Origin: Roseivirga sp.
Lineage (GTDB): Bacteria; Bacteroidota; Bacteroidia; Cytophagales; Cyclobacteriaceae
DNA: 64,000 bases
Assembly (NCBI GenBank): GCA_029262895.1
Contig: JAJCYM010000069.1
Span: forward strand, 1 to 64,000
Reading direction: 5' to 3'
Under the pieces are notes generated by a model. That model ran no database searches. It was given only the letters and a program-made list of their open reading frames with translations, and was not told the DNA's origin. Every line of letters begins with the position of its first letter. Positions within the stretch are counted from its first letter, which is position 1. Of the stretch, positions 25,219-64,000 are shown piece after piece. Both the position numbers and the translations under genes were made by a program.

Positions 25219-25289
25219 GTTAATCTTTTTCTATTGTTTCGCATTGGATCTTATCTGTCTTAGTAAGATCTTTCGAGCGTACGTCATAA

Positions 25290-39600: not shown

Positions 39601-42600
39601 GGAAGCGTAATCAACTGGTCCGTAGATCATAGAGGAAGAAACGGAACTGACGTGGCCGAGGTAAAAATAGGCAGCTCTGTGGCAACAGCCACCACGGTAC
39701 AAACCATGACTGATGGGAATACGGCCTGGGGTTCATACGCTGGCACTTATACAGTGCCGGATGGCCAAACGACAACCTTCATAGTGTTTTCTTCTGTGAG
39801 CTCATCCGGTGGAAGTAGTTCGGTTGGCAACTTTATTGATAATGTGGTCACCACGGTCATTTCAGGTCCGGGATGCAATACAGATACTGATGGCGATGGT
39901 ATACCAAACAGCCTCGACCTGGACAGTGACAATGATGGAATCTACGATTTAGTAGAAGCGGGTCATCTTCAAGCTGATGCCAATAATGATGGAATTATAG
40001 ACGGTGCTGATACCGGTTCAGGAACTAATGGTCTTTTCAACGCACTTGAAACAGTTGCTGATAATGGCGTTCTGAATTACACGGTTAAAGACACCGATGG
40101 AGACGGTAACCTGGACTCCAATGAGCTCGATTCGGACAATGATGGCTGTTTTGATACACTTGAAGCCGGACTTTCTGATACGGATAAAGATGGAACCTTA
40201 GGCACCGGGGCGGCAACTGTAAACTCGGCAACGGGAGTTGTAACAAGCACAGCCGGTTATACCACACCTACAAGTACTTTGGGAGTTTTTGATTTCCAAA
40301 ATGCAGCACTATTTTCCGCCTGCAACACCCCTCCTACTACGGGTGATATCACCAACTCAGGGCTTATTGTTAGCAATGACGCTGGAGTAGACATTGATGA
40401 CCTCACGGGAGCAGATGCTGAAGGATCAGTGACGAATTTTGTGATCAAAACATTGCCTTTGGCCAGTACAGGAGTGCTCACCTTATCTGATGGCACACCG
40501 ATCACTGTAGGTCAGGTATTGACCACTGCTGAGGCCGCAGGGTTGAAATTTGATCCTGCAGTCACTTTCACAGGCAATGCCACCTTCACCTATGCTGCGA
40601 GAGACGATCAGGGCGTAGAAGATGCGACTCCGGCTACCTTCACCATTCCGGTAAGCAACACCCCTCCGACTACTACTGATGTGACCAATACTGCGGGTAT
40701 TTTAAGCAACGCAGGGGCTACCGCACTTGACGATTTAGTTGGTGCCGATGTAGATGGAACAGTAGTGGGATTTTTGATTAAAACTTTACCCCCTGCATCA
40801 GAAGGTGTTTTAAAATTATTAGACGGCTCGGTTGTTTCGCTTGGACAGGAACTAACCACGGCCGAAGCTGCCGGACTGACATTTGACCCAACTTCTGGCT
40901 TTGTAGGTACTACTTCATTTACCTATGCTGCCAAAGATGATGATGGTGCCGAAGATGCCACACCAGCTACTTTCACCATTAATACGTTGAACTCTCCACC
41001 AGATTCAGGTGACATCACAAACTCAAACAGCATTTTAAGCACAGCTGGTGCAACGGATATTGACAACCTAAGTACTTCAGACAGTGATGGCACCGTGGTT
41101 TCAATCATTATTAGAACAGTTCCCAATGCAAGTCATGGTGTGTTGACACTAGCCAATGGCACCGTAATTATACAGGGGCAATCAATCACGCCAGTAGAAG
41201 CATTGGGTCTACGTTTTGATCCTTCTGGTACCTACAATGGCCCAGCCACCTTTACATATTCGGCAGTGGATGATGATGGTGCCGAAGACTTGACACCTGG
41301 AACCTTCATTCTTAATATTGACAATACGCCTCCTATTGTTGCGAGCAATACGATCACAGTCAATGAGAATGTTCAGGACACACCCCTGGGAATCGCCACT
41401 CCAACCGATCCCGATTCAGGTAATACCTTCACAATCATAGTCACTTCCCTTCCATCGTTGGGTGCTGTAACACTGGCAGATGGTACACCAGTGACACTCG
41501 GAATGACTTTGACCAGTCTTCAATTGACAACCCTACTCTACGATGCGCCCGAAGACTATGATGGCACCAGCGATCCCGGAGACTTTGGCTATTCTGTAAA
41601 CGATGGTGAGTTCACCGAGAATGCCGATGTAGACATTATCATTAATCCTGTTAATGATCCTCCCGTAGCCACGGATGCCACGGTAAGTTTATTAGAAGAT
41701 GCTGTTGACGGCACTACCGTTCACAATCTGGTTGCGACTGACCCAGATACTGGTGATGCTCTGACGTACGAAATCACTGGGGGAAATAACACGAACATTT
41801 TCGCCATCAATCCAACTTCCGGAGAAATCACGTTGGCAGACGGCTCACAAGTAGATTTTGAAACATTAATGGTGTACAACCTCACTGTAACGGTCACAGA
41901 TCAAGGCGGACTGACGGATACTGCGAACGTCACTGTAAATATTGGTAATGTAAATGAACCTCCTGTAGTGGATGGCGCCACGGTTCAGGCCAAACAAGAT
42001 CAGGCTTATGTTTTCATGTCTTCAGATTTTCTAACGAATTATTCTGATCCGGAAGGAGCTGCAGCAACAGATGTCAAAATCACAGAGCTTCCAATACGTG
42101 GCCAATTACAACTCAATGGCTCCCCTATTGCAAAAGATCAGGTAATCAGCCTGAATGACATTACCTTGGGCAATTTCACCTATGTGCCACCGTCCGGGCT
42201 TTCAGGGGATACATTTACAGACTTCAAATTCACCATTTCTGACGGTGTGCTTTTTTCAATAGGGAATGATTCAATCATTATTGATGTCGTTCCTTTGACT
42301 TCTGATCTGGCTGTCATCAAAGCAGTGAACCCCTTAAATGCCAATGCAGGACAATCCGTTGACTTTACCATAACGGTAACCAATAATGGACCCGATCTGG
42401 CTACCGGAGTGGCTTTGACTGATCAAATACCTTCAGGCTTTGTATTTGTAAGTGCCGCCCCTACACTAGGAACCTTTAGCAGTGCAACGGGCGAATGGAG
42501 TATTGGTAATATTGCCAACGGAACAACTGTTACCCTGGTAATCACCGCCACTGCCAATTCAGCAGGAGACTTTACCAATGTAGCCACCATCTCATCTACC

Positions 42601-45600
42601 GATAACGTAGACCCCGATTTGGGCAACAACACAGCCACGGTGAATATCAGCACAGAAGCCGTTGATATACAACTAGCCAAATCAGTGGATTTGTCTACTC
42701 AAGACGTGGGAGACGTGGTGGTCTTCACAGTCACCGCCACGAATGCCGGACCAGATGTGGCCACGGGCGTGATTGTGACCGATGAACTACCTTCAGGGTA
42801 CGATTTCGTGAGCAGAACCAGAACACACGGGGAGTACACAAATACAACAGGACTTTGGAATATAGGGGCATTGGCAAGTGGGGAAACCGCTACCTTGACT
42901 ATCAGAGCAACTATCAAGGCAACCGGTAACTTCACCAATACGGCCTCAGTTATTGGCTTAAATCAAACCGATACCAATGCTGCCAATGACCAGGCAAGTA
43001 CAAGTGCAGCCCCTTTGCTTTCAGATGTGGCAATTTCCAAGGTAGTGGACAATACAACACCAACACCTGGCGCAACTGTGGTATTCACAATCTCAGCTGT
43101 CAATAACGGAACGGCCACAGCGCAAGGCGTAGAAATAAGCGACTTGCTTCCTACCGGATACACATTTGTAAGCGATACGAGAACTGCAGGGACCTATAGT
43201 GCTACCACGGGGCTTTGGACCGTTGGAAGTATTACTGCAGGCGCTACACAAACCCTCATTATTCAGGCTACTGTTAATACAACAGGCACGTACCAAAACA
43301 CGGCTACAGTAACCAATAATGATACGTTCGACACCGACAACACCAACGATTCAGCCTCAGCTTCAGTAACGGTACAGACCGCTGATGTAAGCGTAACAAA
43401 GGTGGCCAGTAATCTTGCCGCCAATGTGGGTGAAAATGTAACGTTTACCATCACAGCCAGCAATGCCGGACCCGATGCCGCTACCAATGTCAATGTGCTG
43501 GACCTCTTGCCTTCTGGTTTCACATTCGTTAGTGCCACGGAAAGTCAAGGTACCTACACTTCAGGAACCGGGCTTTGGGCTGTGGGAACAATTAACAATG
43601 CAGCGAACGCCACCTTAAGCGTTGTTGCTACCGTATTGTCGACTGGTACTTATGAAAATACTGCGAGTGTTCAGTCTGTGGATCAATTAGACCCTGATCC
43701 GACTGATGACAGCTCATCAGTTACGGTGACTCCCGCCAATGCCGATTTGACCATTGCCAAAACTGTGAATCAAGCCGGTGCCAATGTAGGCGATCAAGTG
43801 ACCTTTACGATAACTGTTACTAACAATGGTCCGGATGCGGCCTCAGGAATTCAGGTAACCGATCAATTACCAACTGGATATACCTTCGTAAGTGCAACTC
43901 CTGTACAAGGAACCTACCTTAGCACAACCGGAGTTTGGACAGTCGGCAGTCTGGCTAATGGAACCTCCACTTCCCTGGATTTAGTAGGCACATTAAACGC
44001 TGCTGGCACACTCCTGAACAGCGCGAGTATTACCGCAGCCAATGAGTTTGATACCGATAACGGCAACAACACAGCCACAGCCGCCACTGCCATTGAAAGC
44101 TCCGATATCTCTGTGGCGAAATCCGTAAGTAATTTGGCGCCTAATGTTGGCGATAATGTCACGTTCACCATCACTGTGTCAAATGCAGGCCCGGATGATG
44201 CGGATGCACTGAGCATCCTGGATTTACTGCCAAGCGGATACACATTCGTTAGTCAAAATGCCTCCAGAGGCACCTATGTGCCAGGAACCGGTGTTTGGAC
44301 CATTGGCACCTTGAACAACGCTGGAACCGCAACGCTGGAGGTAGTAGCTACGATATTGGCCACCGGTACCTATGCCAACACCGCCACTATTAATGGGGTA
44401 GATCAGGCAGACCCTGACAACACCGATAATTCCAGCACAGTCACTCCCGTACCTTCAGGCTCTGATTTAAACTTAACCAAAGCTGTCGACAACCCAACTC
44501 CTATTGCCGGAGACGATGTCATTTTTACAGTCAACCTATTGAATCAGGGACCAAGCACTGCCACCGGAGTTCAGGTGACAGATCAACTGCCGAATGGTTA
44601 CAGTATTGTAAGCGCGGTTACTTCCCAGGGAACTTATAATCAAGTTTCAGGAGTTTGGGACATCGCAAGCTTACCAAGCACAGCTACGGCCACCTTAACG
44701 GTAAGAGCAACTGTTTTAGCAACAGGTAGCTACACGAATACGGCTACTGTGACTGATTCCGATCAATTTGACGGAGACAATACTGATGATACCGCAAGTG
44801 CTGCCGTGGTACTACAAAGCTCAGATATCAACCTGGTCAAAATTGTAGACAACCCTTCAGCGAATGTTGGTGAAAATGTGACTTTCACGGTTACTGCCAC
44901 GAATAGTGGTCCTGATCGTGCTACTGGCATTTCAATCCTTGACCAACTGCCTTCTGGCTACACCTTTGTTTCGGCAAGTCCTTCGCAAGGCACTTATGTT
45001 TCACAAACCGGCATATGGACGGTCGGACAATTGAACAACGCTGCCTCTGCTACGCTCTCAGTTATTGCAACCGTGCTTTCTACTGGAGATTATGACAACA
45101 CTGCCACTGTGAGCACCCTGGATCAACAAGATCCTGATAATACCGATGACAGTTCTACTGCATCTGTCGTTCCGCCAAGAGCAGATTTAAGTCTTGCAAA
45201 AACAGTGAGTGCCTCAAGTCCCAATGTAGGTGATGTGGTGACATTCACGGTAACATTGACTAATAATGGCCCGGATGCAGCTGCGGCTACCGGAATAGAG
45301 GTCACGGACAGGCTTCCATCGGGATACACTGCCGGAACAATCACACCTAGCGTAGGTACTTACAATACGACTTCAGGAATATGGGCGGTCAGTAGTCTGG
45401 CAAATGGTGCTTCCGCTACTTTGACGATGAATGCAACAGTACTGGCTGCGGGAGACTTTACGAACACGGCTCAGATTACTGCTTCAGATATCTTCGATCC
45501 CAACACAGGAGATAATACGGCCTCGGCTAGCATCGTAGCACAATCATCTGATTTGGCAATCACAAAATCCATCAGTGATGACACGCCAAATGTGGGTGAT

Positions 45601-48600
45601 AATGTGACCTTCACGATACGATTAACCAACAACGGAACCGATCCGGCAACCGGAGTTACGGCAACTGATCAATTACCTTCCGGATACACATTTGTTTCTG
45701 CAAATACAGGGTTTGGCACTTATAACAGCACCAGTGGGATTTGGAACATCGGTTCTGTGGCGGCTAGTCAAACCGCTACTTTAGAAATTGTGGCCACCGT
45801 ACTTTCGACAGGCACCTATAACAATACCGTGTCCATCACCACTTCAGATCAAAGCGATCCTGTTGCTGGTAATAACTCGGCAACCACTACAGTGGATACC
45901 CAATTCGCTGACTTGAACCTAACCAAGGTGGTGGACAATGCTACCCCTACGCCCGGCAGCGATGTAATCTTTACCATCACAGTGAAAAATGATGGACCAG
46001 ATGCTGCCACCAATGTGAGCATTACTGATCAATTGCCAAGTGGATACACCTTCGTATCTGGCAATGCTTCTCAAGGAACATTTGTCAATGGAACTGGGCT
46101 TTGGACCATTGGAACCCTTGGAAATTCAGCTTCCGCTGTACTTTCCATAAGAGCTACGGTGCTTGCTTCCGGAGATTTCACCAATACAGCCAGTGTCACT
46201 TCGAGCGATCAATTTGACACCGATGCTGCTGATAATTCTGCGAGCCGCAGCGTAACCCTGCAATCAAGCGACATCAACATTGCTAAGACTGTAAATGACA
46301 ATGCAGCCAATGTTGGAGAAAATGTTGTTTTCACTGTTACAGCAACCAATGATGGACCAGATGCAGCAACCAACCTGGAAATTTTAGATCAACTGCCATC
46401 AGGATATACCTTTGTGTCTGCCACCTCTACCCAAGGCACTTTTACAAACACAACCGGAATATGGGCCATTGGAACCCTGGCGAACAGCGAGACCGCCACG
46501 CTGGAAGTAACAGCAACAGTGCTTGCCAATGGTGATTTTGAAAACACTGCTTCAGTAAATAGTGTTGATCAACTCGATCCTAATAGCACCAATGATTCCG
46601 CTTCGGCAACAGTAACCGCACCCAGAGCTGATTTGAACCTGATGAAAACCGTAAGTTCAACAAGTCCAAATGTGGGTGATGTGATTACGTTTACAGTGAC
46701 ATTGAAGAACAACGGACCGGATGTCACTGATGCTACGGGCATCGCGGTAACGGATCAACTGCCTTCAGGATATACTTTCGGAACTGCCACTCCTAGTCTG
46801 GGTACTTATAATGAAACAACAGGCATTTGGAGTGTTGGAACGCTTGCACAAAATGCACAAGCCACGCTGACGGTAACTGCCACAGTGCTGGCCGCTGGAA
46901 ACTTCACCAATACGGCTACCGTGACAGCGAATGATGTATTCGACCCTAATTCAGGAGATAATACAGCCTCCGCAAGCATTGTTGCTCAATCTTCTGATTT
47001 GTCTATCACTAAAGCAGTAGATGATGCCACACCAGAAGTAAGTGACAATGTCACTTTCACCATTTCCGTGAGCAATGCAGGGCCTGATGCGGCCACCGGT
47101 GTAGCCGTGACTGATGCGATTCCAAACGGTTATAATTTCGTCTCTTCCAATACAGCTTTCGGAAGCTTCAACAACACCAATGGACTTTGGACAATAGGCT
47201 CCATTGCCAATGGTTCAACCGCTACTTTGGAAATTGTGACACAGGTGCTGTCCACTGGTACTTACGACAATACTGCTACTATTTCAGCTTCTGATCAAAG
47301 TGATCCGGACGCAGGAAACAATACGTCTACAGTTAATGTTGCTGCTCAGTTTGCTGACCTTAACATTACGAAGGTTGTTGACAATGCCACTCCTATTCCG
47401 GGCAGCAATGTGATCTTTACCATCACGGCTTTGAATCAAGGACCCAATGCCGCAACCAACATAGAAATTACCGATCAATTGCCTGATGGATATGTCTTGG
47501 TATCTGCCACACCTAGCACCGGAACCTATACTGCTTCAACGGGCATTTGGGCAATCAGCAGCCTGGCCAACAGTTCTTCTGGTGTATTGACTATCGTGGC
47601 AACAGTGCAGTCTACAGGTATCTTCCTCAATTCGGCTACCGTAACTTCGGTTGATCAATTTGACACGGATGCCACTGACAACTCCGCAAGTGCTACCATA
47701 GCCTTACAGACTTCTGACATCAACATCACTAAAGTAGTGGACAAGCCTGCGGCCAATGTTGGAGAAACGGTCATCTTCACTATTACTGCCTTGAATAGTG
47801 GAAGTGACAACGCCACCAACCTGACCATCACGGATAAATTACCTTCAGGATATACCTTCGTGAGTGCCACACCATCAACAGGTACTTACAGCAGTACTAC
47901 CGGAATCTGGACCATCGGCACCTTGAACAATGCGGCTTCTGCTACCTTAACAGTGACCGCAACTGTGCTGTCTTCCGGAGATTATGGCAATAAGGCTACC
48001 GTCACTACGCTGGATCAAAAAGACCCTGATAGCACAGACGATACGGCTTCAGCCACAGTTGTTCCTGCTCGTTCTGACCTGGCCATTACTAAAATTGTCA
48101 GCAACACCAATCCAAATGCAGGAGATATTGTCACTTTCACAGTAACGCTGACTAACAACGGTCCAAGCACCACTGCTGCTTCTGGTGTGACCGTAACCGA
48201 CCTCCTGCCATCAGGCTTTACATTGGGCACCGCCACTCCAAGTGTCGGAACCTATGCATCTGGCACAGGCCTTTGGACTGTAGGCACATTGGCCAATGGA
48301 GCCAGTGAAACTTTGACAATCACTGCCACCGTTTTATCAACAGGTGACTTTACGAACACCGCTGCGGTGACTGCGGCCGATCAATTTGATCCGAATGCGG
48401 GCAACAATACAGCAACTGCAAGTATTGTAACACAGTCTGCCGATTTGGCCATCACAAAAATGGTGAGCGATGCCACTCCAAACGTGGGAGATAATATCAC
48501 ATTCACTTTACGAGTAACCAATGGCGGCAATGACCTGGCTACAGGGGTCACTGTCACCGATCTTCTTCCAAGTGGTTATACATTCGTTTCTGACAATACG

Positions 48601-51600
48601 AGTTTTGGAACATATAATTCAACTACTGGTGTATGGACCATCGGTTCTATCACCACTAGTCAGACCGCCACTTTGGAAATTGTAGGCACTGTACTTTCAA
48701 CAGGTACTTATAACAATACTGCGTCTATCACCACATTAGATCAAGGCGACCCTGTAACAGCCAATAACACAGCTACCGCAACAGTGGATGCACAATTTGC
48801 TGATCTTAATATGACCAAGGTGGTGGACAATGCTACCCCTGTTCCTGGCAGCGATGTGATCTTCACAGTAACCGTAAGAAATGACGGACCCGATGCCGCT
48901 ACAAATGTGAGCATCACCGATCAATTACCTTCTGGCTATACATTGGTATCGAGCAATGCTTCTCAAGGAACTTATGTAAGTGGCACGGGTATTTGGACCG
49001 TTGGAACGCTAGGAAACTCTGCTTCAGCGGTACTTTCCATCAGGGCTACCGTAGGTTCTTCCGGTACTTTCCTGAATACCGCTAGCATCACGTCAATTGA
49101 TCAATTTGATAATGATGGAACAGACAACTCTGCCACAGCAACCACCACACTGCAAACGGCAGACATTGCACTGACTAAGACGGTAAGCAACGCAACAGCT
49201 AATGTGGGAGACAATGTGACTTTCACGGTAACCGCCACCAACAACGGTTCGGATGCCGCTACCAGCTTGAGTGTTCTGGATCAATTGCCTTCCGGTTACA
49301 CGTTCGTATCTGCTACTTCTACTCAGGGTACTTTCACCAATACGACAGGCATTTGGAATATCGGAACCTTGAATAACGGAGGAACAGTTACCCTGGAGGT
49401 AATCGCCACGGTATTGTCAACAGGTAGTTTTGTGAATTCCGCCTCAGTCAATAACCTTGATCAATTGGATGGCACTTCAACTAACGACACGGCATCAGCA
49501 ACCGTCACTGCTCCAAGAGCTGACCTGAACCTTACAAAAACCGTGAGTAACTCAAGCCCAAATATTGGGGATGTGATCACCTTCACAGTGACCTTGACCA
49601 ATAATGGTCCAAGCACCGCTTCTGCGACTGGTATCAAGGTGACTGACCAATTGCCTTCCGGTTATACTTTAGGCACAGCTACACCTAGCATAGGCACTTA
49701 CGCTTCAGGAACGGGTATATGGGATGTAGGGAGTTTGGCAAAAGATGCACAAGCCACCTTGACCGTGACTGCAACTGTTCTGGGAGCAGGTGATTTCACC
49801 AATACAGCTACTATTACAGCCAATGACGTTTTCGATCCCAACTCGGGAGACAACACTGCGTCCGCGAGTATTGTGGCCCAATCGTCAGACCTCTCCGTAA
49901 CTAAGGTCGCCAGTGATGATACGCCAAATGTGGATGACAATGTAACTTTCACCATCACGGTAAGCAATGTTGGTCCTGATGCTGCTACTGGTGTAGCGGT
50001 AACTGATCAACTGCCTTCCGGTTATGATTTCGTTTCTTCTAATACTGCTTTTGGAAGCTACAACAATGGCAATGGGGTTTGGTCTATCGGATCGATTGCC
50101 AATGGGGCCAGTGCGACATTGGAAATCGTAGCCAAAGTAAAATCAACTGGTGTTTATGACAACACCGCTACCATCACAGCTTCAGATCAAACAGATCCTG
50201 TACCAGGCAACAACAGCGCCATTGAAACGGTGGTTGCTCAGTTCGCTGATCTCAATATGAGCAAAACTGTAGACAACCCTACTCCTATAGCGGGGGCCAA
50301 TGTAATCTTCACGGTTACCGTATTAAATCAGGGGCCAAACGCAGCCACCAATATCGAAATCACAGATCAATTGCCTGATGGATATGTACTTGTTTCGGCT
50401 ACACCGAGTACAGGAACATATACTTCTTCAACAGGAATCTGGGCTATTGCCAATCTCAACAGCAGTTCTTCAGGAGTATTGACTATAGTCGCTACCGTCC
50501 AATCAACAGGTACTTTCACCAATACCGCAACCGTTACAAGTTCAGATGTTTTTGATACAGATGGCACTGATAATGCGGCTAGCAGCACCGTCACTTTACA
50601 ATCTTCTGACATTAACATTACTAAGGTGGTGGACAATACCACTGCCAATGTCGGTGAGAATGTAGTCTTTACAGTAACCGCACTGAACAGTGGTGCCGAC
50701 AATGCTACCAACTTGAGCATACTTGATCAATTGCCTTCTGGATACACATTTGTAAGCGCCACTCCTTCAACCGGCACTTACAATAATGGTACGGGTATTT
50801 GGACCATTGGCACACTGAATAATGCAGCCAATGCTACATTGGCTATCACAGCTACGGTACTTTCCACTGGTGATTATACCAATACGGCTTCAGTGAATGC
50901 AGTAGATCAAATCGATCCTGACAATACAGACAATTCAGCCTCGGCCACGGTCACAGCGCCAAGAGCAGACCTTGAATTGACAAAAATTGTAAGTAGCAAC
51001 AGTCCTAATGTAGGTGATGTGATCACCTTTACAGTGACATTGACCAACAATGGTCCAAGTACTTCTTCAGCAACAGGGGTTGCAGTGACTGATGCCCTAC
51101 CTTCAGGATATACCTTGGGTACAGCCACTCCGAGTTCAGGCACCTATGCTTCCGGAACTGGAATATGGACAGTAGGTACAATAGCTAATGGAGCAACGGA
51201 GACTTTGACTATCACAGCTACGGTATTGGCTTCTGGCAACTTCACGAATACGGCCAGCATCTCTGCTGTTGACCAATTCGATCCTGATGCTGGAAACAAC
51301 ACAGCAACGGCAAGTATTGTAGCGCTATCTTCAGATTTATCACTAGCCAAAGTAGCGAGCGATGCCGCTCCAAACGTAGGTGACAACATTACTTTCACAC
51401 TGACACTATCTAATGTTGGACCAGATGTGGCAACCAACGTTGAAGTGACTGATGCCCTGCCGAGTGGCTACACATTCGTTTCTTCCAACACAACTTTCGG
51501 AACATATACCCCCTCTTCAGGTATTTGGGATATCGGTACGGTTTCTACAGCACAAACGCCCGTACTGACCATCACTGCTACTGTATTGTCCACAGGCACA

Positions 51601-54600
51601 TATAACAATACTGCCTCCATTACAGCTTCAGATCAATCGGACCCGGTAAGTGCAAACAACTCAGCTACAGCGAATGTGGCTGCACAAATGGCTGACTTGA
51701 GCATTACTAAAGTAGTGAACGATGCCACTCCGGCTCCTGGAAGTCAAGTAACTTATACCATTACATTGACTAACAATGGTCCGGATGCGGCAACCAATGT
51801 AACAGTAAGCGACAGATTACCTTCTGGCTTGACCTTCGTTTCGGCCACACCTAGTGCGGGTACATATGATTCCGGAACTGGCCTCTGGACAGTAGGCACT
51901 GTTGCCAACAGTTCAAGTGCAGTCTTAACGCTTACAGGAACCGTTTTAACCACCGGCAGCTTCACTAATGTGGCCAACATCAATAGTGCTGATCAATTTG
52001 ATACTGATGTTTCCAACAACAGTGCAAATCAAGGTTTGACACTACAGCAATCAGATATTGGCATCACCAAGGTAGTAGACAATGCAACCGCCAATGTGGG
52101 TACCAACGTGACCTTCACAATCACTGCCTCGAATGCCGGACCAAATGATGCGACTAATCTGGTCATCAATGACTTGCTTCCTTCGGGCTATACTTTTGTA
52201 AGCCAGGCGGCAAGTGCAGGTACTTATATTTCAGGTACTGGTGTCTGGACAGTGGGAAGCCTGAGCAATGCAGCGAATGCTACCTTGACCGTGGTAGGAA
52301 CTGTACTGGCAACGGGAGATTATGGAAATACTGCCTCAGTATCGAGTGTGGATCAGTTGGATGGAAATGCAGCAAATGACCAAGCCACTCAAAACGTGAC
52401 ACCGCCAAGAGTTGATTTGAGCTTGGCCAAAGTGGTAGACCTTCCTAGGGTAAATACAGGAAATACGGTCAACTTCACTATCACATTGACCAACAATAGC
52501 ACAACAACCAGTTCTACTGGAATAACGGTTACCGATTTACTTCCAACAGGATATACATTCGTTAGCTCAACACCTTCTCAAGGAACCTATGCCTCCGGTA
52601 CTGGTCTGTGGACGGTAGGTACACTTGCACAATCCAGCAACGCGACATTAACGCTGACCGCCACCGTAAATGGGGCAGGTGACTTTACCAACTCTGCTAC
52701 AATTACAGCTGCCGATCAATTCGACACCGACAGTTCGAACGACACGGCAACCGCTTCTACTGTGAAGCAATCGGCTGATATTGCCATTGCGAAAACCGCA
52801 GACAATGCAGCTCCTCAAGTGGGTGGCCAAGTAGTCTTCACAATTACTGCCACACATACCGGGGATGATGAAGCCACAGGAGTTACAATTACTGACCTAT
52901 TGCCAAGCGGCTACGCATTTGTGAGCGCCAGCACATTGACAGGCTCATACAGCAGTGGTACAGGTGTTTGGACAATTGGTACCATTCCGATCAACGGAAC
53001 AGCAACCTTAACCCTCACAGGTACAGTACTCTCTACAGGCACTTACAACAATACCGCTACCCTGACTACTATTGACCAAGCTGATAGCAATGCTGGCAAT
53101 GACTCAGCAACTGCCACCGTAATACCCCAAGTAGCTGATCTGAACATGAGCAAGGTGGTAGACAATGCCACCCCTATTTCGGGTGCAGATGTGATTTTCA
53201 CGGTGACCGTACTCAACCAGGCTGGGACGGCCTCAGCAACCAATGTCACGGTAACCGATTTACTTCCTTCCGGATACACGTTCGTAAGTGCCACACCTTC
53301 TCAAGGAACTTATGCTTCTGGTACGGGCGTATGGACAGTAGGCACACTGGCAAATGCCGCCAGTGCAACCTTGACGCTTAGAGCTACAGTTTTATCAACA
53401 GGAAGCTACAGCAATACAGCAACTGTTACTGCATCTGATCAATTTGATGATGATGGTACTGACAATAGCGCAAGTGCTGGAGTGACTGTTCAAACATCCG
53501 ATGTGAACATCACCAAAGTAGTTGATAATACGACTGCTAATGTCGGGCAAAACGTGGTATTCACCATTTCTGCAAGAAATGATGGGCCAAGTGATGTGAC
53601 CAATTTGATTGTCTCTGACGAACTCCCAACTGGTTATACCTTCGTATCGAGTACGCCAAGTCAGGGTACTTATAGCAGCAGCACCGGACTTTGGACAGTA
53701 GGTTCGGTAGCGAATGGTGTCACGGCAACACTTGCAATCACCGCCACCGTAGTAAACAATGGTAGCAATACCAATACTGCTTCGGTTAGCTCTGTAGACC
53801 AGCTTGATTCTGACAATACAGACAACTCAGCTTCCGCAACAGTGACCCCACCAATTGCTGAGCTCTCGATGGCCAAGACAGTGGATGATCCAACGCCAAT
53901 TGTAGGCCAGACAGTAGTGTTCACGGTAACCTTAAAAAGTGAAGCAGGCAGTACTGCAGATGCCACCAATGTAACCGTGACGGACTTGGTGCCTAGCGGA
54001 TACACATTTGTGAGTGCCACCCCTTCTATCGGAGCTTATGCTTCAGGAACTGGTATTTGGACTGTGGGAACATTGACCAACGGAAGTACCGAAACGCTCT
54101 CTATCAGTGCTACTGTCAATGCAGGAGGCGACTTCTCCAATGTGGCGCGTATCACCGCATCAGATCAATTCGATCCTAACCTGGGTAACAATACAGCTTC
54201 GGTAAGTACAGCAGCACAGACTGTTGATTTGGCGGTAACCAAAACGGTGGATAACGCCACTCAAGATGTAGGAGAAAGCGTGATATTCACTGTTTCACTA
54301 CTCAATAATGGGCCTGATCCTGCCACCGGGGTAACCGTAACAGACCTATTGCCATCTGGCTATACATTCGTTTCTAATACTGCTTCCCATGGCAGCTATG
54401 TTTCGGGCACAGGACTTTGGACGGTTGGAGGTTTAGCCAATGGTGAAACAGCCACATTGACGATGCGAACAACGATCAATGCAACAGGAGCCTATACTAA
54501 TACAGCAACACTCACAACAGTCGATCAGACTGAATCGAATGCTGCAAATGACTCAGATAATGCGGTCTCGGCACCATTACTATCCGAGGTTGCTTTGACC

Positions 54601-55935
54601 AAGGCAGTCAATGATCTTACGCCACTTCCAGGTGGAACTGTACAGTTTACCATCTCTGCCACAAACAACGGTGCAAATACTGCCCAGAGCGTTCAGGTGA
54701 CTGACCTATTGCCATCCGGTTATACTTATGTCAGTGACATTGTCACAGCAGGCACTTATAACAGCACAAGTGGGCTTTGGGATATTGGTAATATTACTGC
54801 TACCGCTACCCAGACATTGGTAATTACTGCGACTGTCAACACTTCTGGCGTTTATACTAACACCGCTACCATTACTCAAAACAATACCTTCGATACAAAC
54901 GCTGCCAACAATGCCGATAATGCTTCGGTAACGGTAGAAACATCAGATTTAAGTGTGACCAAAACGGTTGACAATGCTGTTACCAATGTTGGGCAAAATG
55001 CGACCTTCACCATCACGGTTTCAAATGCTGGATCAGATGCAGCAACCAACGTCAACATTCTCGATCTTCTGCCTTCTGGCTTCACCTTCGTAAGCGCAAC
55101 GCCAAGTCAAGGTACCTATACATCCGGAACAGGAGTTTGGGCAGTGGGAACAATTAACAATGCTGCAAATGCCAGTTTATCCATAGTGGCAACGGTTCTT
55201 TCTACAGGTACTTACCAAAACACGGCAAGCGTTCAGTCATTAGATCAATTGGATGCCAATGCTTCGAATGACAGTGCTAGCGAAACTGTTGATCCATCAT
55301 TTATTGATTTGGCATTGACCAAAACTGTGGACGTAATAGGAGCTAACGTAGGTGACCAGGTAACATTCACGCTTGGGCTGACAAACAACGGACCAGATGC
55401 AGCAACGGCCATCGCAGTAACTGATCTATTGCCAAGTGGTTATACATTCGTAAGTGCAACTCCTGGGCAAGGCACTTACGCCTCTGGCACTGGTGTTTGG
55501 ACTGTAGGTAACCTAGCCAACGGGGCATCCGTGAATATGCAATTGGTGGCTACCTTGAATGCTTCGGGTACACTTACCAATACGGCAACCGTGACCTCGG
55601 TTCCTGAATTTGACACGAATACTGCTAACAATACTGCTTCGGCAGCCGCAACGATTGAAAATGCCGATATCTCTGTGGCTAAATCGGTGAACAATCTGGC
55701 TCCAAACGTAGGTGAGTCAGTCACATTCACGGTCACTGCAAACAATGCCGGACCTAGTGATGCAGATGCTTTGAGCATTAAAGATCTTCTTCCAAGCGGA
55801 TTTACTTTCGTAAGCGCCACACCTTCCAGAGGCACTTACCTTTCAACATCGGGTATCTGGAATATCGGAACCTTAAACAATGCCGGAACCGCTACCCTCA
55901 CCATCAATGCCTCTGTACTTTCCACAGGTTATTAA
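33631..55935 (+). CDS. giant secreted repeat protein, FG-GAP/UnbV/cadherin-like/DUF11 (N-terminal 7434 residues)
   Basis: A huge exported protein, probably a surface or released adhesin. The signal peptide is about 1-27 ([18 protein letters not shown]). Seven FG-GAP/VCBS blades with DxDxDGxxD calcium motifs (about 50-420) form a propeller, followed by an ASPIC/UnbV-like domain (about 450-535). Four copies of a VCBS/cadherin-like repeat follow (about 560-690, 705-830, 845-970, 1190-1330). Ig/cadherin-like repeats (about 1550-1880 and 2230-2670) flank thrombospondin-3-like Asp-rich segments (about 1887-1905, 2084-2190) and a galactose-binding-like domain starting NGSFELPG (about 1905-2075). A classical cadherin domain is at about 2677-2785. 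From residue 2891 come DUF11 units of about 120 residues. The frame ends at TAA 55933-55935 inside unit 38, where the repeat clearly should continue, and the same frame stays open beyond. Confidence 0.85.
35311..37630 (+). repeat. four-copy VCBS/cadherin-like repeat inside the giant gene
   Basis: Copies begin near 35315, 35735, 36155 and 37195; a unique domain of about 200 residues separates the third and fourth. Each contains ITDTDxxVxD-like, ATITLTNxxDG, GITAxxYNSxTGVxTLTG and YQTALxQIxYxNT segments. Three are contiguous and spaced about 420 bases. Confidence 0.8.
55933..55935 (+). other. in-frame TAA inside DUF11 unit 38
   Basis: The codons around it read ACA GGT TAT TAA GTC ATT TCG, where sibling units encode T-G-[TN]-Y-x-N-[TS]. 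No insertion or deletion is needed: the length is unchanged and the frame continues correctly on both sides. Changing a few A/T bases restores a typical unit. It is either a recent nonsense change, an assembly/base-call error, or a readthrough stop. Confidence 0.85.
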
Positions 55936-58900
55936 GTCATTTCGGCAGCGGTTGATGCTGTGAACCAAGCTGACGCTGATAACACCAACAATTCAAGTAT
56001 GGTGACGGTGGTACCAATGGTGGCCGATCTGAACTTGACTAAAACGGTCGACAATTCGACTCCTAACCCTGGAGATGATGTGATCTTCACCGTTAACTTG
56101 TTGAATCAAGGAACAAGCGCGGCAACGGGTGTTACAGTCACCGATCTTTTACCGAGTGGCTTCACATTGGTGAGTGCTGTTGCTTCACAAGGCACTTACG
56201 CTTCAGGCACGGGATTATGGACTGTCGGTAGCCTGGCGAATACGGCTACGGCAACGCTTACCATAAGAGCAACTGTCAAGACGTCTGGGGTATTCACCAA
56301 TACCGCATCTATCACCACTTCTGATCAATTCGATGGAGACAATACGGATAATACGGCAAGCGATGCGATTACTTTGCAAACTTCGGATATCAACATTAGC
56401 AAGGTAGTAGATAATGCTGTCGCTAATGTGGGTGAAAATGTGACATTCACCGTCACAGCCTTAAATGATGGTACGGACAATGCGACAAACCTTAGCATCT
56501 CTGATCAATTGCCTTCAGGCTTTGCCTTCGTGAGTGCAACACCATCCGCAGGCACCTATAACAGTGGAACTGGTGTTTGGAACATCGGCACCTTGAATAA
56601 CGCTGCAAATGCCACCCTATCGATCACTGCCACTGTACTTTCTTCAGGTACCTATACCAATACTGCCACTGTCAGTACACTCGATCAATTCGATCCAGAC
56701 AATACGGACGACAGTGCCTCTGAAACTGTAGTTCCTCCATTGGCTGATTTGGCCATTACCAAGCTGGTGAATAATGTTAGTCCGAATGTGGGAGACTTGA
56801 TCACATTCACCATCACATTAACTAATAATGGCACAGCCGCTGCCAGTGGTGTTGAGGTAACAGACCTTTTACCTTCGGGATATACAATTGGCACCGTAAC
56901 TCCGAGTACCGGTACCTATGTTGCCGCCACAGGTATATGGAGCGTTGGATCACTTGCTAATGCTGCAACAGCTACCTTGACCATCAACGCGACTGCCAAC
57001 TCAACGGGTGATTTCACCAATACCGCCACAATCACAGATGCCGATCAATTTGATCCAAATGTGGGTAACAACACGGCTAATGCCACCATTGTGACACAAT
57101 CAGCAGACTTGGCCCTAACGAAAGTTACGAGTGACGCGACACCAAATGTAGGCGATGAAATTACATTCACATTGACTTTGACAAACGCTGGAACCGACCT
57201 GGCTACGAATGTAGTAGTGACGGATTTACTACCTAGTGGGTATACCTTCGTTTCTTCCAGCACCACATTTGGTACCTATAGCGCCACTACAGGCCTTTGG
57301 AATGTAGGTTCAGTATCCACCACACAAACACCAGTCCTAACCATTGGAGCAAGTGTATTATCAACAGGTGATTATAACAACACCGCTACAATAACCGCAG
57401 CCGATCAAGACGACCCGACTACAACGAACAACAGCAGTACTGCCAATGTTGATGCGCAAACTGCGGATTTGAGTATTGTCAAATTGATCAATACTTCTAC
57501 ACCAATTCCAGGGGCACAAGTGGTATACACCATTACCGTGACCAACAATGGTCCTGATGCAGCAACCGGTGTAACAGTAAGTGATAGATTGCCTTCAGGA
57601 TTGACATTCGTAACGGCAACACCAAGTGCAGGTACATACGATTCGAACACAGGCATTTGGACAGTAGGAGGTTTAGTGAATAGCTCCAGTGCCACACTCG
57701 TATTGACCGGAACCGTGCTTACCACAGGGAACTTCACCAATGTGGCGAACATTGCAGGAGCAGATCAATTCGACACAGATATCTCAAATAACAGTGCCAG
57801 CCAGGGATTGACAGTACAACAGGCAGATATTGCCATTACTAAAGCGGTGGATAACAATACCGCCAACGTGGGCGAGAATGTCACTTTCACAGTAACGGTA
57901 GCCAATGCCGGACCGGATAATGCCACAGGCGTTGTAATCAACGATTTGCTTCCATCAGGTTATGCTTTCGTCAGTCAAACACCAAGTGTGGGAACCTATA
58001 ATTCAACCACAGGTGTATGGACCTTGGGTAGTCTTAACAACGGAAGTAATGCCACACTAACGATAGTTGGAACAGTACAGGCATCAGGCGACTATGGAAA
58101 TACGGCTTCTTTAGATGCTATCGACCAGATCGATGGTAACAATTCAAACGATCAGGATACAGAAACTGTCACTCCTCCAAGAGTTGATTTGAGCATTACA
58201 AAAACTGTTGACCAGGAACGTGTGAATACAGGAGATGAAATCACATTCGTCATGACTGTAACCAATAACAGCACTTCGGCAAGCGCAACGAGTGTTTCTG
58301 TTACGGATTTGTTGCCGACTGGCTACACATTAACTGGAAACACACCAAGTCAGGGTACCTACGTTACAGGCACAGGAGTCTGGACCATAGGCACCATTGC
58401 GAAAAACGCCATTGCTACCCTGGCCATTACAGCGACCGTAAATGCCAGCGGCAACTTTGACAATACTGCCACCATTACGGCAACTGATCAATTCGATCCG
58501 GATACTTCCAATGACAGCGCATCGGCAACTACCACAAAGCAAAGTGCAGATATCGCTGTGGCAAAAACGGTAAGTGATGCCAGTCCACAAATCGGTGATG
58601 AGATCACATTTACCATTACCGCAACTCACACTGGGGACGATGATGCTACCGGAGTTGCCATTACTGATGCGCTGCCAACCGGCTATGATTTTGTTGGTGC
58701 AACTACAGCTAATGGAAGCTATGACAGTGGCACTGGCATCTGGACGGTAGGTACCATTGCAACAAATACCACAGTTTCATTAACCATCACCGTTTCTACG
58801 AAATCTACTGGTACTTATGACAATACCGCCACCTTGACCGGTATTGATCAAGCTGATAGCAATGCGGGTAATGATGCAGCAACCGTAGTAGTAGTTCCAC

Positions 58901-61900
58901 AAGAAGCAGATTTAAACCTGAGTAAAACGGTGGACAATGCGGCACCAATTCCTGGTGCAGATGTCGTCTTTACAGTAACTGTTGAAAACCAGGGCGGAGG
59001 CCAAGCCACCAATGTGGAAATCACGGATCAATTGCCAAGCGGATACAGTTTGGTTAGCTTCTCTACCTCTCAGGGCACATACGTCACAGGAACCGGCATT
59101 TGGACTGTAGGATCTCTTGCCAATGGCGGAAGTGCCTCACTCACTGTAAGAGCCACTGTTCTGGCTACCGGCAATTATATCAATACAGCAACAGTCAGCG
59201 CATCCGATCAATTTGATGATGATTCCTCAGACAATTCAGCCTCAAGAGCGGTCGTTGTGCAAAGCTCAGATATCAGCTTAACTAAAGTGGTAGACAATTC
59301 CACTGCCAATGTTGGTCAAAATGTAATCTTTACCATTACGGCTAACAATGCAGGACCGGATGCGGCCACCAACCTTGAAGTGTTGGATCAATTGCCAGCA
59401 GGCTACACATTTGTATCTGCCAGCACAGCGGCAGGCACCTATAGCAATGCCACAGGCATTTGGTCGGTTGGCACCTTAGCGAACGGAGCCAATGCGACTT
59501 TGGCCATCACAGCAACAGTGGCCTCCACAGATGACAACCTCAATACCGCTTCGGTAAATGAGTTAGATCAAATCGATCCAAACAACACCAATAATTCGGC
59601 TACGGCAACCGTCACTCCTCCGGTCGCTGATTTATCCATAAGCAAAACGGTAAATACAAATACCCCAACCGTGGGCGAAGAGGTGATCTTTACGTTGACC
59701 GTAACGAGCGAATCATCGAGTACTGCGGATGCTACCAATGTGGCTGTGACTGATGTACTACCTGATGGTTATACCTTCGTAAGTGCGAATACAGCAAGTG
59801 GCTCTTACACTGCCGGCACGGGTATCTGGGATATCGGCACCGTAACTAATGGAGGCTCAGTAAGCCTAACCATCAACGCGACAGTGAATGCCACGGGTGA
59901 TTTGACCAATGTGGCGCGAGTGACAGCCTCTGATCAATTCGATCCGAATTTAGGAAACAACACTGCTACGGTCAGCACAAACTCACAAGCTATTGATTTG
60001 GCAGTGACTGTAACACCAGACGTTACCAGCCAGGATGTTGGTGGCAATGTGACCTTTACAGTAACCTTGACCAACAATGGCCCCGATGCTGCGACAGGAG
60101 TCATAGCCAATGATTTATTACCGACCGGCTTCGCCCTTGTATCGAGCACCCAGGATTTTGGAACATACGATGAGAATACCGGTACCTGGAATGTGGGTAC
60201 TTTGGTCAATGGTGCAACAGCCACCCTGACGATTGTAGGAACTGTTCAAAGCACAGGTGATTATACTGACGTCATTTCTGTGATCTCCGCAAATCAGACA
60301 GATTTGGCGAGTTCCAACAATCAGGCAAGCACCACTATCACGGCCCTTCTTTCCGATGTTTCCGTGACTAAGGTGGTGAGCAACACCACGCCAATTCCAG
60401 GAGAACAAATTGAGTTTACCATTACCGCCTCGAATGCCGGACCGAATAGTGCGAGAGAAGTGCAGGTCACTGACTTACTACCAAGCGGCTATACCTTCAT
60501 CAATGCGACCCGAACAAAAGGTACCTACGACAATACGACCGGTATATGGAATATCGGAACAATCGGCAATAGCAGCGTGCAAACACTGATCATCCGCGCT
60601 TCGGTGAATGCCTCAGGCACTTACTTGAACACTGCTTCAATCAGTAGAAATAGCACATTTGATACAGATAACAGCAATGACTCAGCCACCGCAACAGTCA
60701 CTGTTCAGGCGGCTGACCTGAGCGTTACGAAAGTAGTGAGCAATAGCGTGGCCAATGTGGGAGAAAATATCACATTCACCATTACTACGGCCAATGCAGG
60801 ACCAGACAATGCCACTAATGTGGAAATTCTGGATCAATTGCCTTCAGGCTTCACATTCGTGAGTGCTACTGCGAGTCAAGGCACTTACAATGCTACGAGT
60901 GGCGTGTGGAGTACCGGAAACGTGAACAATGCAGCGAATGCCACCCTGACAATAGTAGCAACCGTACAATCAACGGGCAACTTTACGAATACCGCTTCGA
61001 TTCAGCGTTTGGATCAAAACGATACCAACACAGGTAATGACACAGCTTCAGCCCTTGTGACTCCGCCAAATGCAGATTTGACTATTACCAAAATCATTGA
61101 TAATGCGAGCCCGAATGTCGGTAACAATGTCACATTCACCATTAGGCTTACCAATGACGGGCCTGATCAGGCTACAGGTATTTCCGTAACTGACCAGCTG
61201 CCTTCAGGCTTCACCTTTGTGAATGCAACGGAGAGTCAGGGCGCCTATGTTTCTGCCTCCGGCATCTGGACCGTAGGAAGTCTCGCGAATGGCGCAACCG
61301 CTACACTTGAAGTACTGGCAACCACATTGGCTACTGGTGACAGAACCAATACAGCCACGATCACTGCCTCAGATCAGTTTGATCCTGATAGTAGCAATAA
61401 CAGTTCAAGCGTTTCTTCTGGCATTCAAAACTCTGACATAGGCATTGCGAAAACCGTCAATAACCTTACACCAAATGTCGGGGATGTGGCAGTATTCACG
61501 ATAACGGTAAACAATGTGGGTCCTGATGCAGCAACAGGATTGCAAGTCACGGATCAACTGCCAAGCGGATTCACTTTTGTGAGTGCCACTCCTTCCAGAG
61601 GAACCTATGACAACACCACAGGACTTTGGAACATTGGAAGCCTCAACAATGCCGGGGTAGCCACTTTAACGGTAAATGCCACTACCCTATCGACAGGTGT
61701 CTTCCTTAACACTGCCACTGTTTCGGCAGCCGATCAAAACGATCCTGATGCCACCAACAATACCTCATCTGTAACTCTTGATCCGATGATTGCCGATCTG
61801 AGCATCAGCAAAGCAGTGGATAATGCCACACCGGTTCCGGGAGAAGATGTGATCTTCACCATCAACCTTTCGAATCAAGGACCGGATGCAGCAACTGGCA

Positions 61901-64000
61901 TCCAGGTAACGGATCAGATTCCTAGTGGCTTCAGCATTGTAAGTGCAGTGGCTTCACAAGGCACTTATACTTTAAGTACAGGTATTTGGGCCATCAGTAG
62001 CTTAGCAAATAGTGCAACAGCCACATTGACCATCAGAACTACGGTTCAATCTACAGGTGATTTTACTAATACAGCGACTATCACCGCGGTTGATCAATTC
62101 GACAGTGATAATACAAACAACACCGCAAGTGCATCAGTGACCTTGCAATCTGCTGACATCAACATCACTAAGGTCGTTGACGATGCCACAGCGAATGTAG
62201 GCGAGACTGTGATCTTTACAATTACTGCAACGAATCAGGGAACTGATAGAGCAACTGGCCTGACCATACTTGATCAGCTGCCATCAGGTTATAATCTGAT
62301 CTCTGCAAATCCAAGTGCTGGAAGCTATGTTTCTGCAACAGGCATCTGGACAATTGGCCAATTGACAAGTGGAAGTTCCGCCACATTGACTGTGACCGCT
62401 TCAGTACTTTCCAGTGGCACATACACGAATTCGGCAAGCGTCAATACATTGGATCAAATCGATCCTGACACAACAGATGATTCCACTTCAGCAGTGGTAA
62501 CACCACCAATAGCTGATTTGGCTGTAACCAAAATCGTGAGTAACTCCAATCCAAATGTGGGTGATTTAATCACTTTCACAGTAACAGTCCAAAACAATGG
62601 TTCTTCTACCGCTACCGGAATCGAATTGACAGACCAAGTGCCTTCTGGCTATACATTAGTAACGCCAACACCAAGCGTTGGAACCTATGATACCAACTCG
62701 GGCATATGGACATTGGGAAGTCTGGCTAATGCAGCTTCTGCTACCTTGACCATGACAGCCACGGTGAACGAGTCGGGTGACTTCACCAATACAGCACGCG
62801 TTTCTGCTTCTGATGTGTTTGATCCCAATGAAGGAGATAATACGGCCAGCGTGAGTATTATCGCACAGTCTTCCGACTTAGAAATTACCAAGTCCATTGA
62901 CGATGCTATGCCAAATGTCGGTGATAATGTGACTTTCACGATCAATCTGACAAACCACGGCCCTGACCCAGCGACAAGTGTTACGGCATTGGATCAACTA
63001 CCAAGTGGTTACGATTTCGTTTCTTCAAACTCCAACTTTGGCACCTACAGTCAAGCCACTGGCATATGGACCGCAGGTTCGATTGCCAATGGACAAACGG
63101 CTACTTTGACTATAGTAGCTACCGTGAATGAAACGGTTGACTATAGTAACACCGCCACAATCACTGGATCGGATCAGGAAGATCCTGAGGGGGCAAATAA
63201 CACCTCAACAGTAACTGTCACCACTCAATTTGCAGATCTGAATGTCTCGAAAACAGTGGATAACACCTCTCCTATTCCAGGGGAAGATGTGATCTTCACT
63301 GTAACGGTGTTGAATGAAGGACCAAACTCTGCCACAAATGTTCAGATCACCGATCTACTGCCTGATGGTTATGTACTGGTAAGCAGCAATGCCTCAGTAG
63401 GTACTTACACCGCTTCGACCGGACTGTGGACCATCAGCAGCATTGGTAGCACGGGAAGTGCGGTATTGACACTTAGAGCAACGGTTCAATCCACAGGTAC
63501 ATTCACCAATACCGCTTCTGTAACTGCTTCAGATCAATTCGATGTAGACAACACGGATAACTCAGCCTCCGAGTCTGTGACCGTTCAGGCTTCCGATATT
63601 GGCCTGACAAAAGCTGTAGATAATGCCACTGCCAACGTGGGTGAGAATGTGACTTTCACAGTGACAGCTACTAATAACGGAACAAATACGGCCACAGGAC
63701 TTTCGGTAAGTGATGTATTACCTTCAGGTTATACTTTCGTATCAGCAACGTCTAACCAAGGTATTTTCACAAGTGCCACTGGTAATTGGAACGTAGGAAC
63801 CCTCACCAATGCTGGTGTAGCTACTCTGGAAATCACTGCCACAGTATTATCAACAGGGGTGTATGAAAACACGGCATCGGTAAGCACATTAGATCAGGTG
63901 GATGGTATTCCTGGAAATGACACGGCATCGGCTACTGTCAATCCACCAAGGGCAGATTTGAACCTGACCAAAACTGTGGATTCGAACAATCCGAATGTCG
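55936..64000 (+). CDS. continuation of the giant DUF11 protein beyond the TAA (partial)
   Basis: Reading every codon from 55936 to the window end in the same frame, I find no further stop in 2688 codons. The segment holds the end of unit 38, complete units 39-60 and the start of unit 61. It has no signal peptide, and the first in-frame ATG is at 55999, inside a unit, so it is not a natural independent gene. It is best read as the C-terminal part of the protein that starts at 33631. The true C-terminus, with any anchoring or type IX sorting domain, lies right of the window. If the TAA is real and not suppressed, this part is a decaying remnant. Confidence 0.75.

What the first reader, a model, noticed from the sequence alone, without database searches (positions are those of the whole stretch)
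42301..64000. Nested 4-, 8- and 16-unit higher-order periodicity in a ~61-unit DUF11 array
Units are not independent copies. In units 7-26 four classes alternate (e.g. VDNxTPxPGxDVIF, VDNxxANVGENV, [19 protein letters not shown], [12 protein letters not shown]). Units 8 apart are closest: 10/18 share SQTATLEIV and LSTGTYNN, 12/20 share [16 protein letters not shown], 14/22 share [12 protein letters not shown] and SSNTAFGS, 17/25 share GTATPS and [15 protein letters not shown]. Later units 27-42 and 43-58 match one-to-one at a distance of 16 (e.g. [11 protein letters not shown] in 27/43, RVNTG in 29/45, ATHTGDD in 30/46, [13 protein letters not shown] in 33/49). Units 2-6 recur at 34-38. This suggests stepwise block duplications of doubling size, about 1.4, 2.9 and 5.8 kb.
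Basis: seen in the sequence. Interest (0 to 1): 0.7.

Follow-up and report, generated by a model that had tools for sequence, protein, structure and literature searches.

The report
Super-repeats in a giant bacterial adhesin
A bacterium, most likely a Roseivirga, encodes a roughly 14,000-residue surface stalk of 91 similar domains arranged in repeating groups of four, an old layout shared with sister species, in two of which part of the stalk is still being homogenised at a distance of eight domains.

Summary
The periodicity is real. The array has 91 DUF11 (CLIPPER) units, 60 of them complete in the window. Protein identity peaks at lags 4, 8 and 16 (z about +10 to +12 against shuffled unit order). 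Unit number modulo 4 can be called from sequence for 65 of 68 units. Beyond the 4-unit classes, colinear copies stand out only at lags 8, 16, 32, 40 and 48.

The layout is old. Synonymous sites between units are near background. Units correspond one-to-one (91:91) in two congeners (one contiguous, one joined over its contig ends); a third has 67, consistent with losses of 8 and 16 units. Only central blocks (units 11-16 and 19-24) are homogenised at lag 8: 89-100% identical DNA within each of two species. So "doubling-size block duplications" is partly right: block copying in multiples of four is supported, a 4-8-16 chronology is not.

Best read as a T9SS type-B, PorP/SprF-anchored fibrillar adhesin with an isopeptide-locked stalk. 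Titin and nebulin super-repeats are the nearest architectural parallel. New variant of a known kind.

The parts
33631..55935 (+). First ORF of the giant adhesin gene (7434 aa): FG-GAP region, cadherin/Big domains, DUF11 units 1-38 up to an in-frame TAA
33958..35136 (+). FG-GAP repeats and UnbV/ASPIC region (residues about 110-502), putative distal/adhesive end
   Evidence: Pfam FG-GAP_3 1e-27; UnbV_ASPIC 7e-4, below its curated cut-off
41653..42255 (+). Cadherin / Big_9 / Cadherin_4 domains just before the array
42304..64000 (+). DUF11 array, units 1-61 (unit 61 cut); continues to unit 91 at contig position 75141
42664..45183 (+). Head block 1 (units 2-8), copies at 34-40 and 50-56
   Evidence: colinear runs lag 32 and 48; head tree
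45184..51693 (+). Core block 1 (units 9-26), the most regular 4/8-unit periodic region
   Evidence: lag 4 0.653, lag 8 0.729 for units 7-26
45910..48075 (+). Units 11-16: positions homogenised with units 19-24 in G001 and G002
   Evidence: nt identity 0.90-1.00 in G001, 0.89-0.98 in G002
48802..50967 (+). Units 19-24: partner of the homogenised tract
51694..54225 (+). Tail block 1 (units 27-33), copy at 43-49 (lag 16)
   Evidence: tail tree, support 100
54226..56745 (+). Head block 2 (units 34-40), interrupted by the stop in unit 38
55933..55935 (+). In-frame TAA in unit 38, absent from G001, G002 and G013; G011 lacks this unit
55960..63999 (+). Second ORF in the same frame (6598-aa open frame to contig 75732): end of unit 38, units 39-91, Big_9, CHU_C/T9SS type B sorting domain
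56746..57465 (+). Core block 2 (units 41-42, minimal core)
   Evidence: my parse of the runs
57466..59994 (+). Tail block 2 (units 43-49)
59995..62514 (+). Head block 3 (units 50-56)
62515..64000 (+). Core block 3 (units 57-66, runs past the window end)
   Evidence: lag 48/40 runs

Best explanation
The gene encodes a giant fibrillar adhesin of the T9SS type-B kind: FG-GAP and cadherin domains at the N-terminus, a stalk of 91 DUF11/CLIPPER Ig-like domains, and a C-terminal sorting domain. Shown: the stalk has a super-repeat of four domain classes. Inferred: an old 4-domain tile was copied as blocks. Shown: longer blocks are alike too, at offsets that are multiples of 8; I parse them as three superblocks of head, core and tail. 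Shown: head and tail copies predate the split of the species compared and have diverged since. Shown: in two relatives the central core blocks at lag 8 are nearly identical within a species but not between species, so they were homogenised after these species parted. Inferred: gene conversion or register-locked unequal recombination does this, and such recombination removed 8 and 16 units in G011. Inferred: the stalk projects the N-terminal domains from the cell, most domains locked by a Lys-Asn isopeptide bond, and the C-terminus is held by the neighbouring PorP/SprF protein.
Against: In this genome the stop in unit 38 leaves the first ORF without a sorting domain, so the full protein may not be made. 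Support for within-species pairing of core blocks is only 71, and G000's own core blocks do not pair. In G000 a few lag-8 pairs have 4-fold identity somewhat above background (10/18 21 of 51, 11/19 24 of 57), so saturation is not complete. The class calls leave out one unit at a time, so close block copies stay in the training set. G001's contig ends lie in unit 19, inside the near-identical tract, so its count of 91 assumes that they abut. G011's 8-unit loss could be a collapsed assembly of such a tract. 11 of 91 (G001) and 20 of 91 (G002) units do not have their aligned partner as best hit. Only 5 of 19 genus genomes carry the gene. Ligand, fibre structure and expression were not tested.
Confidence: 0.77

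Rival explanations
1. Recent stepwise block duplications of doubling size (4, 8, 16 units) built the array.
For: Peaks at lags 4, 8 and 16 and a run at 32.
Against: Synonymous 4-fold identity between units is 0.309 at lag 8 and 0.293 at lag 16 against 0.301 for all pairs, so the copies are old. Runs at lags 40 and 48 score about as high as 32. The youngest exchange in relatives is lag 8.
Confidence: 0.1
2. The four classes are kept mainly by selection on a 4-domain structural or binding tile (as proposed for titin A-band super-repeats), with shared ancestry secondary.
For: Class identity persists with near-background synonymous sites. Of the 30 most class-informative columns 18 lie in the linker (118-124), the 10-20 loop or the 101-109 loop, as do 10 of the first 11. 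No adjacent pair of 90 exceeds 60% identity; 59 of 5000 random orders did as well.
Against: Shared ancestry alone gives the same pattern. Classes decay in units 69-91. Other DUF11 arrays show no higher order or period 2, so no tile of four is demanded by the fold. No coordinates were available to test whether the columns form interfaces.
Confidence: 0.3
3. Assembly artefact: scrambled or collapsed repeats.
For: Relatives do break or end at the near-identical tract: G013 contigs end in units 11 and 23, and G001's contig ends lie in unit 19. G011's 8-unit loss could be a collapse.
Against: In the window's genome no two units exceed 73.6% nt identity, TRF finds no array there at periods up to 500, and the unit order matches the uninterrupted G002 array 91:91.
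Confidence: 0.03
4. Generic property of DUF11 arrays, no special history.
For: DUF11 is widespread: 40 of 118 sampled family genomes at E<=1e-10.
Against: Of the four other arrays with at least 5 matched units that I examined, one has adjacent units 91-100% identical over units 2-12 of 14 with no higher order, one has period 2 (0.67 against 0.43), two have no clear period (cut to matched fragments, small numbers).
Confidence: 0.05

Closest known systems
DUF11/CLIPPER-domain fibrillar adhesins (PF01345, PDB 9IFR; PMC12617251, passages read)
   Different: 91 units in a four-class super-repeat with head/core/tail superblocks; not described in the passages that I read
SprB-type T9SS type-B surface adhesins with PorP/SprF partner (PMC9143113, passages read)
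   Same: CHU_C/type B sorting domain, PorP/SprF gene next to it, giant repetitive chain
   Different: Stalk of DUF11 domains. A TPR/PD40/OmpA gene follows porP; its domain content resembles PorE (recalled, not tested), whereas sprB/sprF lack a porE-like neighbour per that paper. Gliding role untested
Titin A-band and nebulin super-repeats (PMC10665226, PMC1553488, passages read)
   Same: Groups of domains repeat as a unit, autocorrelation peaks at the group size, part of the array more regular than its end
   Different: Bacterial, isopeptide-type domains, group sizes 4 and 8, homogenised tract in relatives; a parallel in layout, no descent claimed
Periscope proteins (PMC8201768, passages read)
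   Same: Tandem stalk that could set projection length; unit number differs in one relative (67 against 91)
   Different: Units in the window at most 82% identical in protein; unit number is the same, 91, in diverged species G000 and G002. Variation among strains was not tested

Membership tests
DUF11/CLIPPER (PF01345) | Match to the profile above the curated cut-off | tested here: met
   91 of 91 matches over 24.6 bits
DUF11/CLIPPER (PF01345) | CnaA-like Ig fold | tested here: met
DUF11/CLIPPER (PF01345) | Lys/Asp/Asn isopeptide triad residues | tested here: met
   K+D+N in 84 of 91 units, 87 with Glu allowed for Asp. K6 and D40 align with 9IFR; the Asn lies outside the aligned part
DUF11/CLIPPER (PF01345) | Isopeptide bond formed | not testable with these tools
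   needs mass spectrometry or a crystal structure
T9SS type-B cargo | C-terminal type B sorting domain | tested here: met
   TIGR04131 46.7 bits over cut-off 35; CHU_C 8.9e-22
T9SS type-B cargo | Cognate PorP/SprF gene beside it | tested here: met
   PF11751 1.5e-76 directly downstream; same in G002 and G011
T9SS type-B cargo | Sec signal peptide | not tested
   no signal-peptide predictor was run
T9SS type-B cargo | Uninterrupted chain from start to sorting domain | tested here: inconclusive
   interrupted by one TAA in this genome; open in G002, 14038 aa
SprB gliding adhesin | Needed for gliding | not testable with these tools
   -
Periscope protein | Highly identical repeats with unit number varying between strains | tested here: inconclusive
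   Window units at most 82% protein identity, but G001 and G002 have 89-100% identical DNA in one tract; 91 units in G000 and G002, 67 in G011. Strains of one species were not available
Titin-like super-repeat (works like, not member) | Autocorrelation peak at a multi-domain lag | tested here: met

The most novel reading that the evidence does not exclude
The four-domain tile, not the single domain, is the unit of selection and of recombination in this stalk. Exchange happens only in register (multiples of 4, in practice 8), which keeps neighbouring domains dissimilar and so avoids misfolding, while total length is held at 91 units as a ruler over long times. The array would be a bacterial counterpart of titin in which concerted evolution can be watched block by block.
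Probability: 0.25. Interest if true: 0.68.

Novelty: new variant of a known kind. Interest (0 to 1): 0.5.

Why it matters
The multi-domain super-repeats in the passages I read (PMC1553488, PMC10665226) are titin and nebulin. Here is a bacterial one with a 4/8/16 hierarchy, orthologs aligned unit by unit, and a core that was homogenised in two species while its flanks diverged. It makes testable how long arrays of similar folds grow without misfolding, whether recombination is locked to a register, and whether stalk length is selected. The near-identical tract also offers a reason why two assemblies of relatives end there.

Tried and rejected
TRF with periods up to 500 gave no array in 42-64 kb; units differ too much. 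The four-unit profile found no PDB chain by sequence at E 0.001; a single-unit profile found 9IFR. The reading-frame paper PMC3711429 matched DUF111, not DUF11. Foldseek's top rows are integrins and other multi-Ig chains, with TM-scores of 0.38 or less by query length; not taken as relatives, and 9IFR is not among the 50 rows shown there; it appears in the second look. Control arrays were cut to matched fragments, so their lag values are rough. The block tree for the lag-8 core used G011 units 10-17 as numbered, although its units 16 and 17 resemble 24 and 25. The head tree is unrooted, so the order of the three head copies is not settled. Library searches: 'Roseivirga' with 'DUF11' gave 0 papers; no listed title or abstract in the others describes a DUF11 super-repeat, but most lists were cut (20 of 47, 12 of 77, 12 of 4,083) and only open-access papers are held. 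PMC11573180 names DUF11 among domains of huge proteins (passages). PMC9210967 names DUF11 as a stalk domain (passages).
Full report
What was checked. The window lies on contig C69 (105,498 bases) of a 5.79 Mb genome in 102 contigs. So the window most likely comes from a Roseivirga species. DUF11 matches number 91, all on this contig at 42304-75126. They lie in one frame of 14,033 codons that a single TAA divides.

Periodicity. Units were cut at the DUF11 starts and aligned. Over all 91 units every multiple of 4 from 4 to 44 has higher identity (0.488-0.535) than any other lag up to 45 (0.453-0.481; the highest of these is lag 2, z +2.3). Class (unit number modulo 4) was recovered by leave-one-out profiles for 65 of 68 units; only the unit itself was left out, so block copies help. 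The three misses, 6, 38 and 54, lie 32 and 16 apart. Units 69-91 keep the call when shifted by one in 15 of 23 cases, and in 1 of 23 unshifted. In units 1-68 same-class identity is 0.559 against 0.470-0.491 for other classes.

Higher order. A null that permutes units within classes was used for units 1-68. Whole-array means reach the null in 136 of 5000 shuffles for lag 8, 57 for 16, 59 for 40 and 3 for 48, but in 1513 for lag 4 and 553 for 32. Best colinear runs are at lags 16, 8, 32, 48 and 40. Runs at 12, 20, 24, 28, 36, 44 and 52-64 do not stand out, and the lag-4 run does not pass over all lags (265 of 2000). My parse is three superblocks: heads 2-8, 34-40 and 50-56; cores 9-26, 41-42 and 57-66; tails 27-33, 43-49 and 67 onwards. 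The third tail is recognisable in 67 and weakly in 68. Core sizes 18, 2 and 10 differ by 8.

Age. In this genome the closest pair of units is 73.6% identical in DNA. Identity at 4-fold sites is 0.309 at lag 8 and 0.293 at lag 16 against 0.301 for all pairs; lags 4 (0.326) and 40 (0.322) and the two closest pairs, 10/18 (21 of 51) and 11/19 (24 of 57), are above that. Orthologs G000-G001 are 0.691 in DNA and 0.323 at 4-fold sites. So class and block likeness is held at the protein level over a time in which silent sites have nearly randomised.

Relatives. Both gene ends are found in the same 5 of 19 genus genomes. G002 has 91 units in one contig. G001 has 91 when its contig ends are joined, and the frame runs through. 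G011 has 67. G013 has 11 and 69 pieces on two contigs, with partial units at both breaks. Unit alignment of G000 with G001 and with G002 is 91:91 without gaps, mean identity 0.76 and 0.74; the best hit is the aligned partner for 80 and 71 of 91 units, so for 11 and 20 units another unit scores as high or higher.

Two modes of evolution. Head and tail copies group by position across the species that have them, with support 100 for the two tails and for heads 34-40 and 50-56; heads 2-8 are separated from the other two by a split of support 94 in an unrooted tree. The core behaves otherwise: blocks 10-17 and 18-25 pair within G001 and within G002 (support 71 each), and G000's do not pair. By DNA, units 11-16 and 19-24 are 0.90-1.00 identical in G001 (two pairs are 1.00) and 0.89-0.98 in G002, while the same units between the two species are 0.79-0.85. 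Outside the tract lag-8 identity is 0.52-0.76. The same place was thus homogenised in both lineages after they parted. G013's contigs end just there, which fits the same tract but does not show it. G011 runs 15, 24, 25, 42, 43. I read this as a loss of 8 and a loss of 16 units in register. The tail tree places G011 inside the 43-49 clade and G000 outside the other species, so 91 is probably ancestral. A collapsed assembly for the 8-unit loss is not excluded.

What it is. The N-terminus has FG-GAP repeats, then cadherin and Big domains. The C-terminus has Big_9 and a T9SS type B sorting domain. A PorP/SprF gene and an OmpA/PD40 gene follow in G000, G002 and G011. In PMC9143113 (passages read) type-B cargo is proposed to be anchored by PorP-like partners, and PorP-PorE pairs for non-moving cargo. 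In PMC12617251 (passages read) DUF11 is renamed CLIPPER, with an isopeptide bond shown in 9IFR. Here K, D and N at the matching columns are present in 84 of 91 units; over 418 units of five genomes K is in 400, D in 379 (E in 19) and N in 409 (2 partial units of 420 left out). K6 and D40 align with 9IFR by sequence; the Asn column lies outside that alignment and is assigned by spacing. 9IFR superposes on one unit of the predicted tile (model pLDDT 94.2, pTM 0.64, so domain orientations are less certain).

How it may work. Inferred: a stalk of 91 mostly locked Ig-like domains carries the N-terminal domains a few hundred nm from the cell. No adjacent pair exceeds 60% identity; random orders average four such pairs, and 59 of 5000 orders had none. 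Growth by blocks gives this for free, and avoidance of misfolding or aggregation between like neighbours, discussed in PMC8201768 and PMC1553488 (passages), would favour it. Of the 30 most class-informative columns 18 lie in the linker, the 10-20 loop or the 101-109 loop and 12 elsewhere; whether these form interfaces was not tested.

Controls. Of 118 sampled family genomes 40 have DUF11 at E<=1e-10, and none but G000 shows more than 23 matches (at most 35 candidates per genome were scored, so counts for rich genomes are lower bounds; the other four array carriers are not among the matches listed). Six loci from other genera were read: one array has adjacent units 91-100% identical over units 2-12 of 14 and no higher order, one has period 2, two are unclear, two have only 3 units. 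So period 4 is not general in the few arrays seen.

The stop. Unit 38 has TAA at 55933-55935, with further differences around it including loss of the isopeptide Asn; G001, G002 and G013 are open there, and G011 lacks the unit. If real, the first product lacks the sorting domain and the second lacks the N-terminal part. Error, strain polymorphism or decay cannot be told apart here.

Verdict. Observation confirmed and extended; interpretation partly supported. The finding is a new variant of a known kind: a super-repeat stalk with register-matched homogenisation in relatives.

Noticed in passing
window 55933-55935: Single in-frame TAA splits the giant gene in this genome; the relatives that have the unit are open there. 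Neighbouring residues of unit 38 are also unusual.
   Followed up: partly
window 16267-32618, minus strand: Two large neighbouring genes match Tc-complex families (TcA_TcB_BD, ABC_toxin_N; SpvB, TcdB mid regions, RHS). Described only.
   Followed up: no
contig C69 75734-78832 (L011 5734-8832): PorP/SprF and OmpA/PD40 genes directly behind the array gene, same order in G002 and G011.
   Followed up: yes
G001 contig C1 ends; G013 C6 and C5 ends: Assemblies of two relatives end inside or at the lag-8 tract, a likely cause of breaks there.
   Followed up: partly
L134 (G155 C11): Another genus has a DUF11 array with adjacent units 91-100% identical over units 2-12, a plain homogeneous array.
   Followed up: partly
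units 69-91 (contig 66850-75141): C-terminal quarter of the array is more diverged and shifted by one unit in register; its periodicity is weak.
   Followed up: partly
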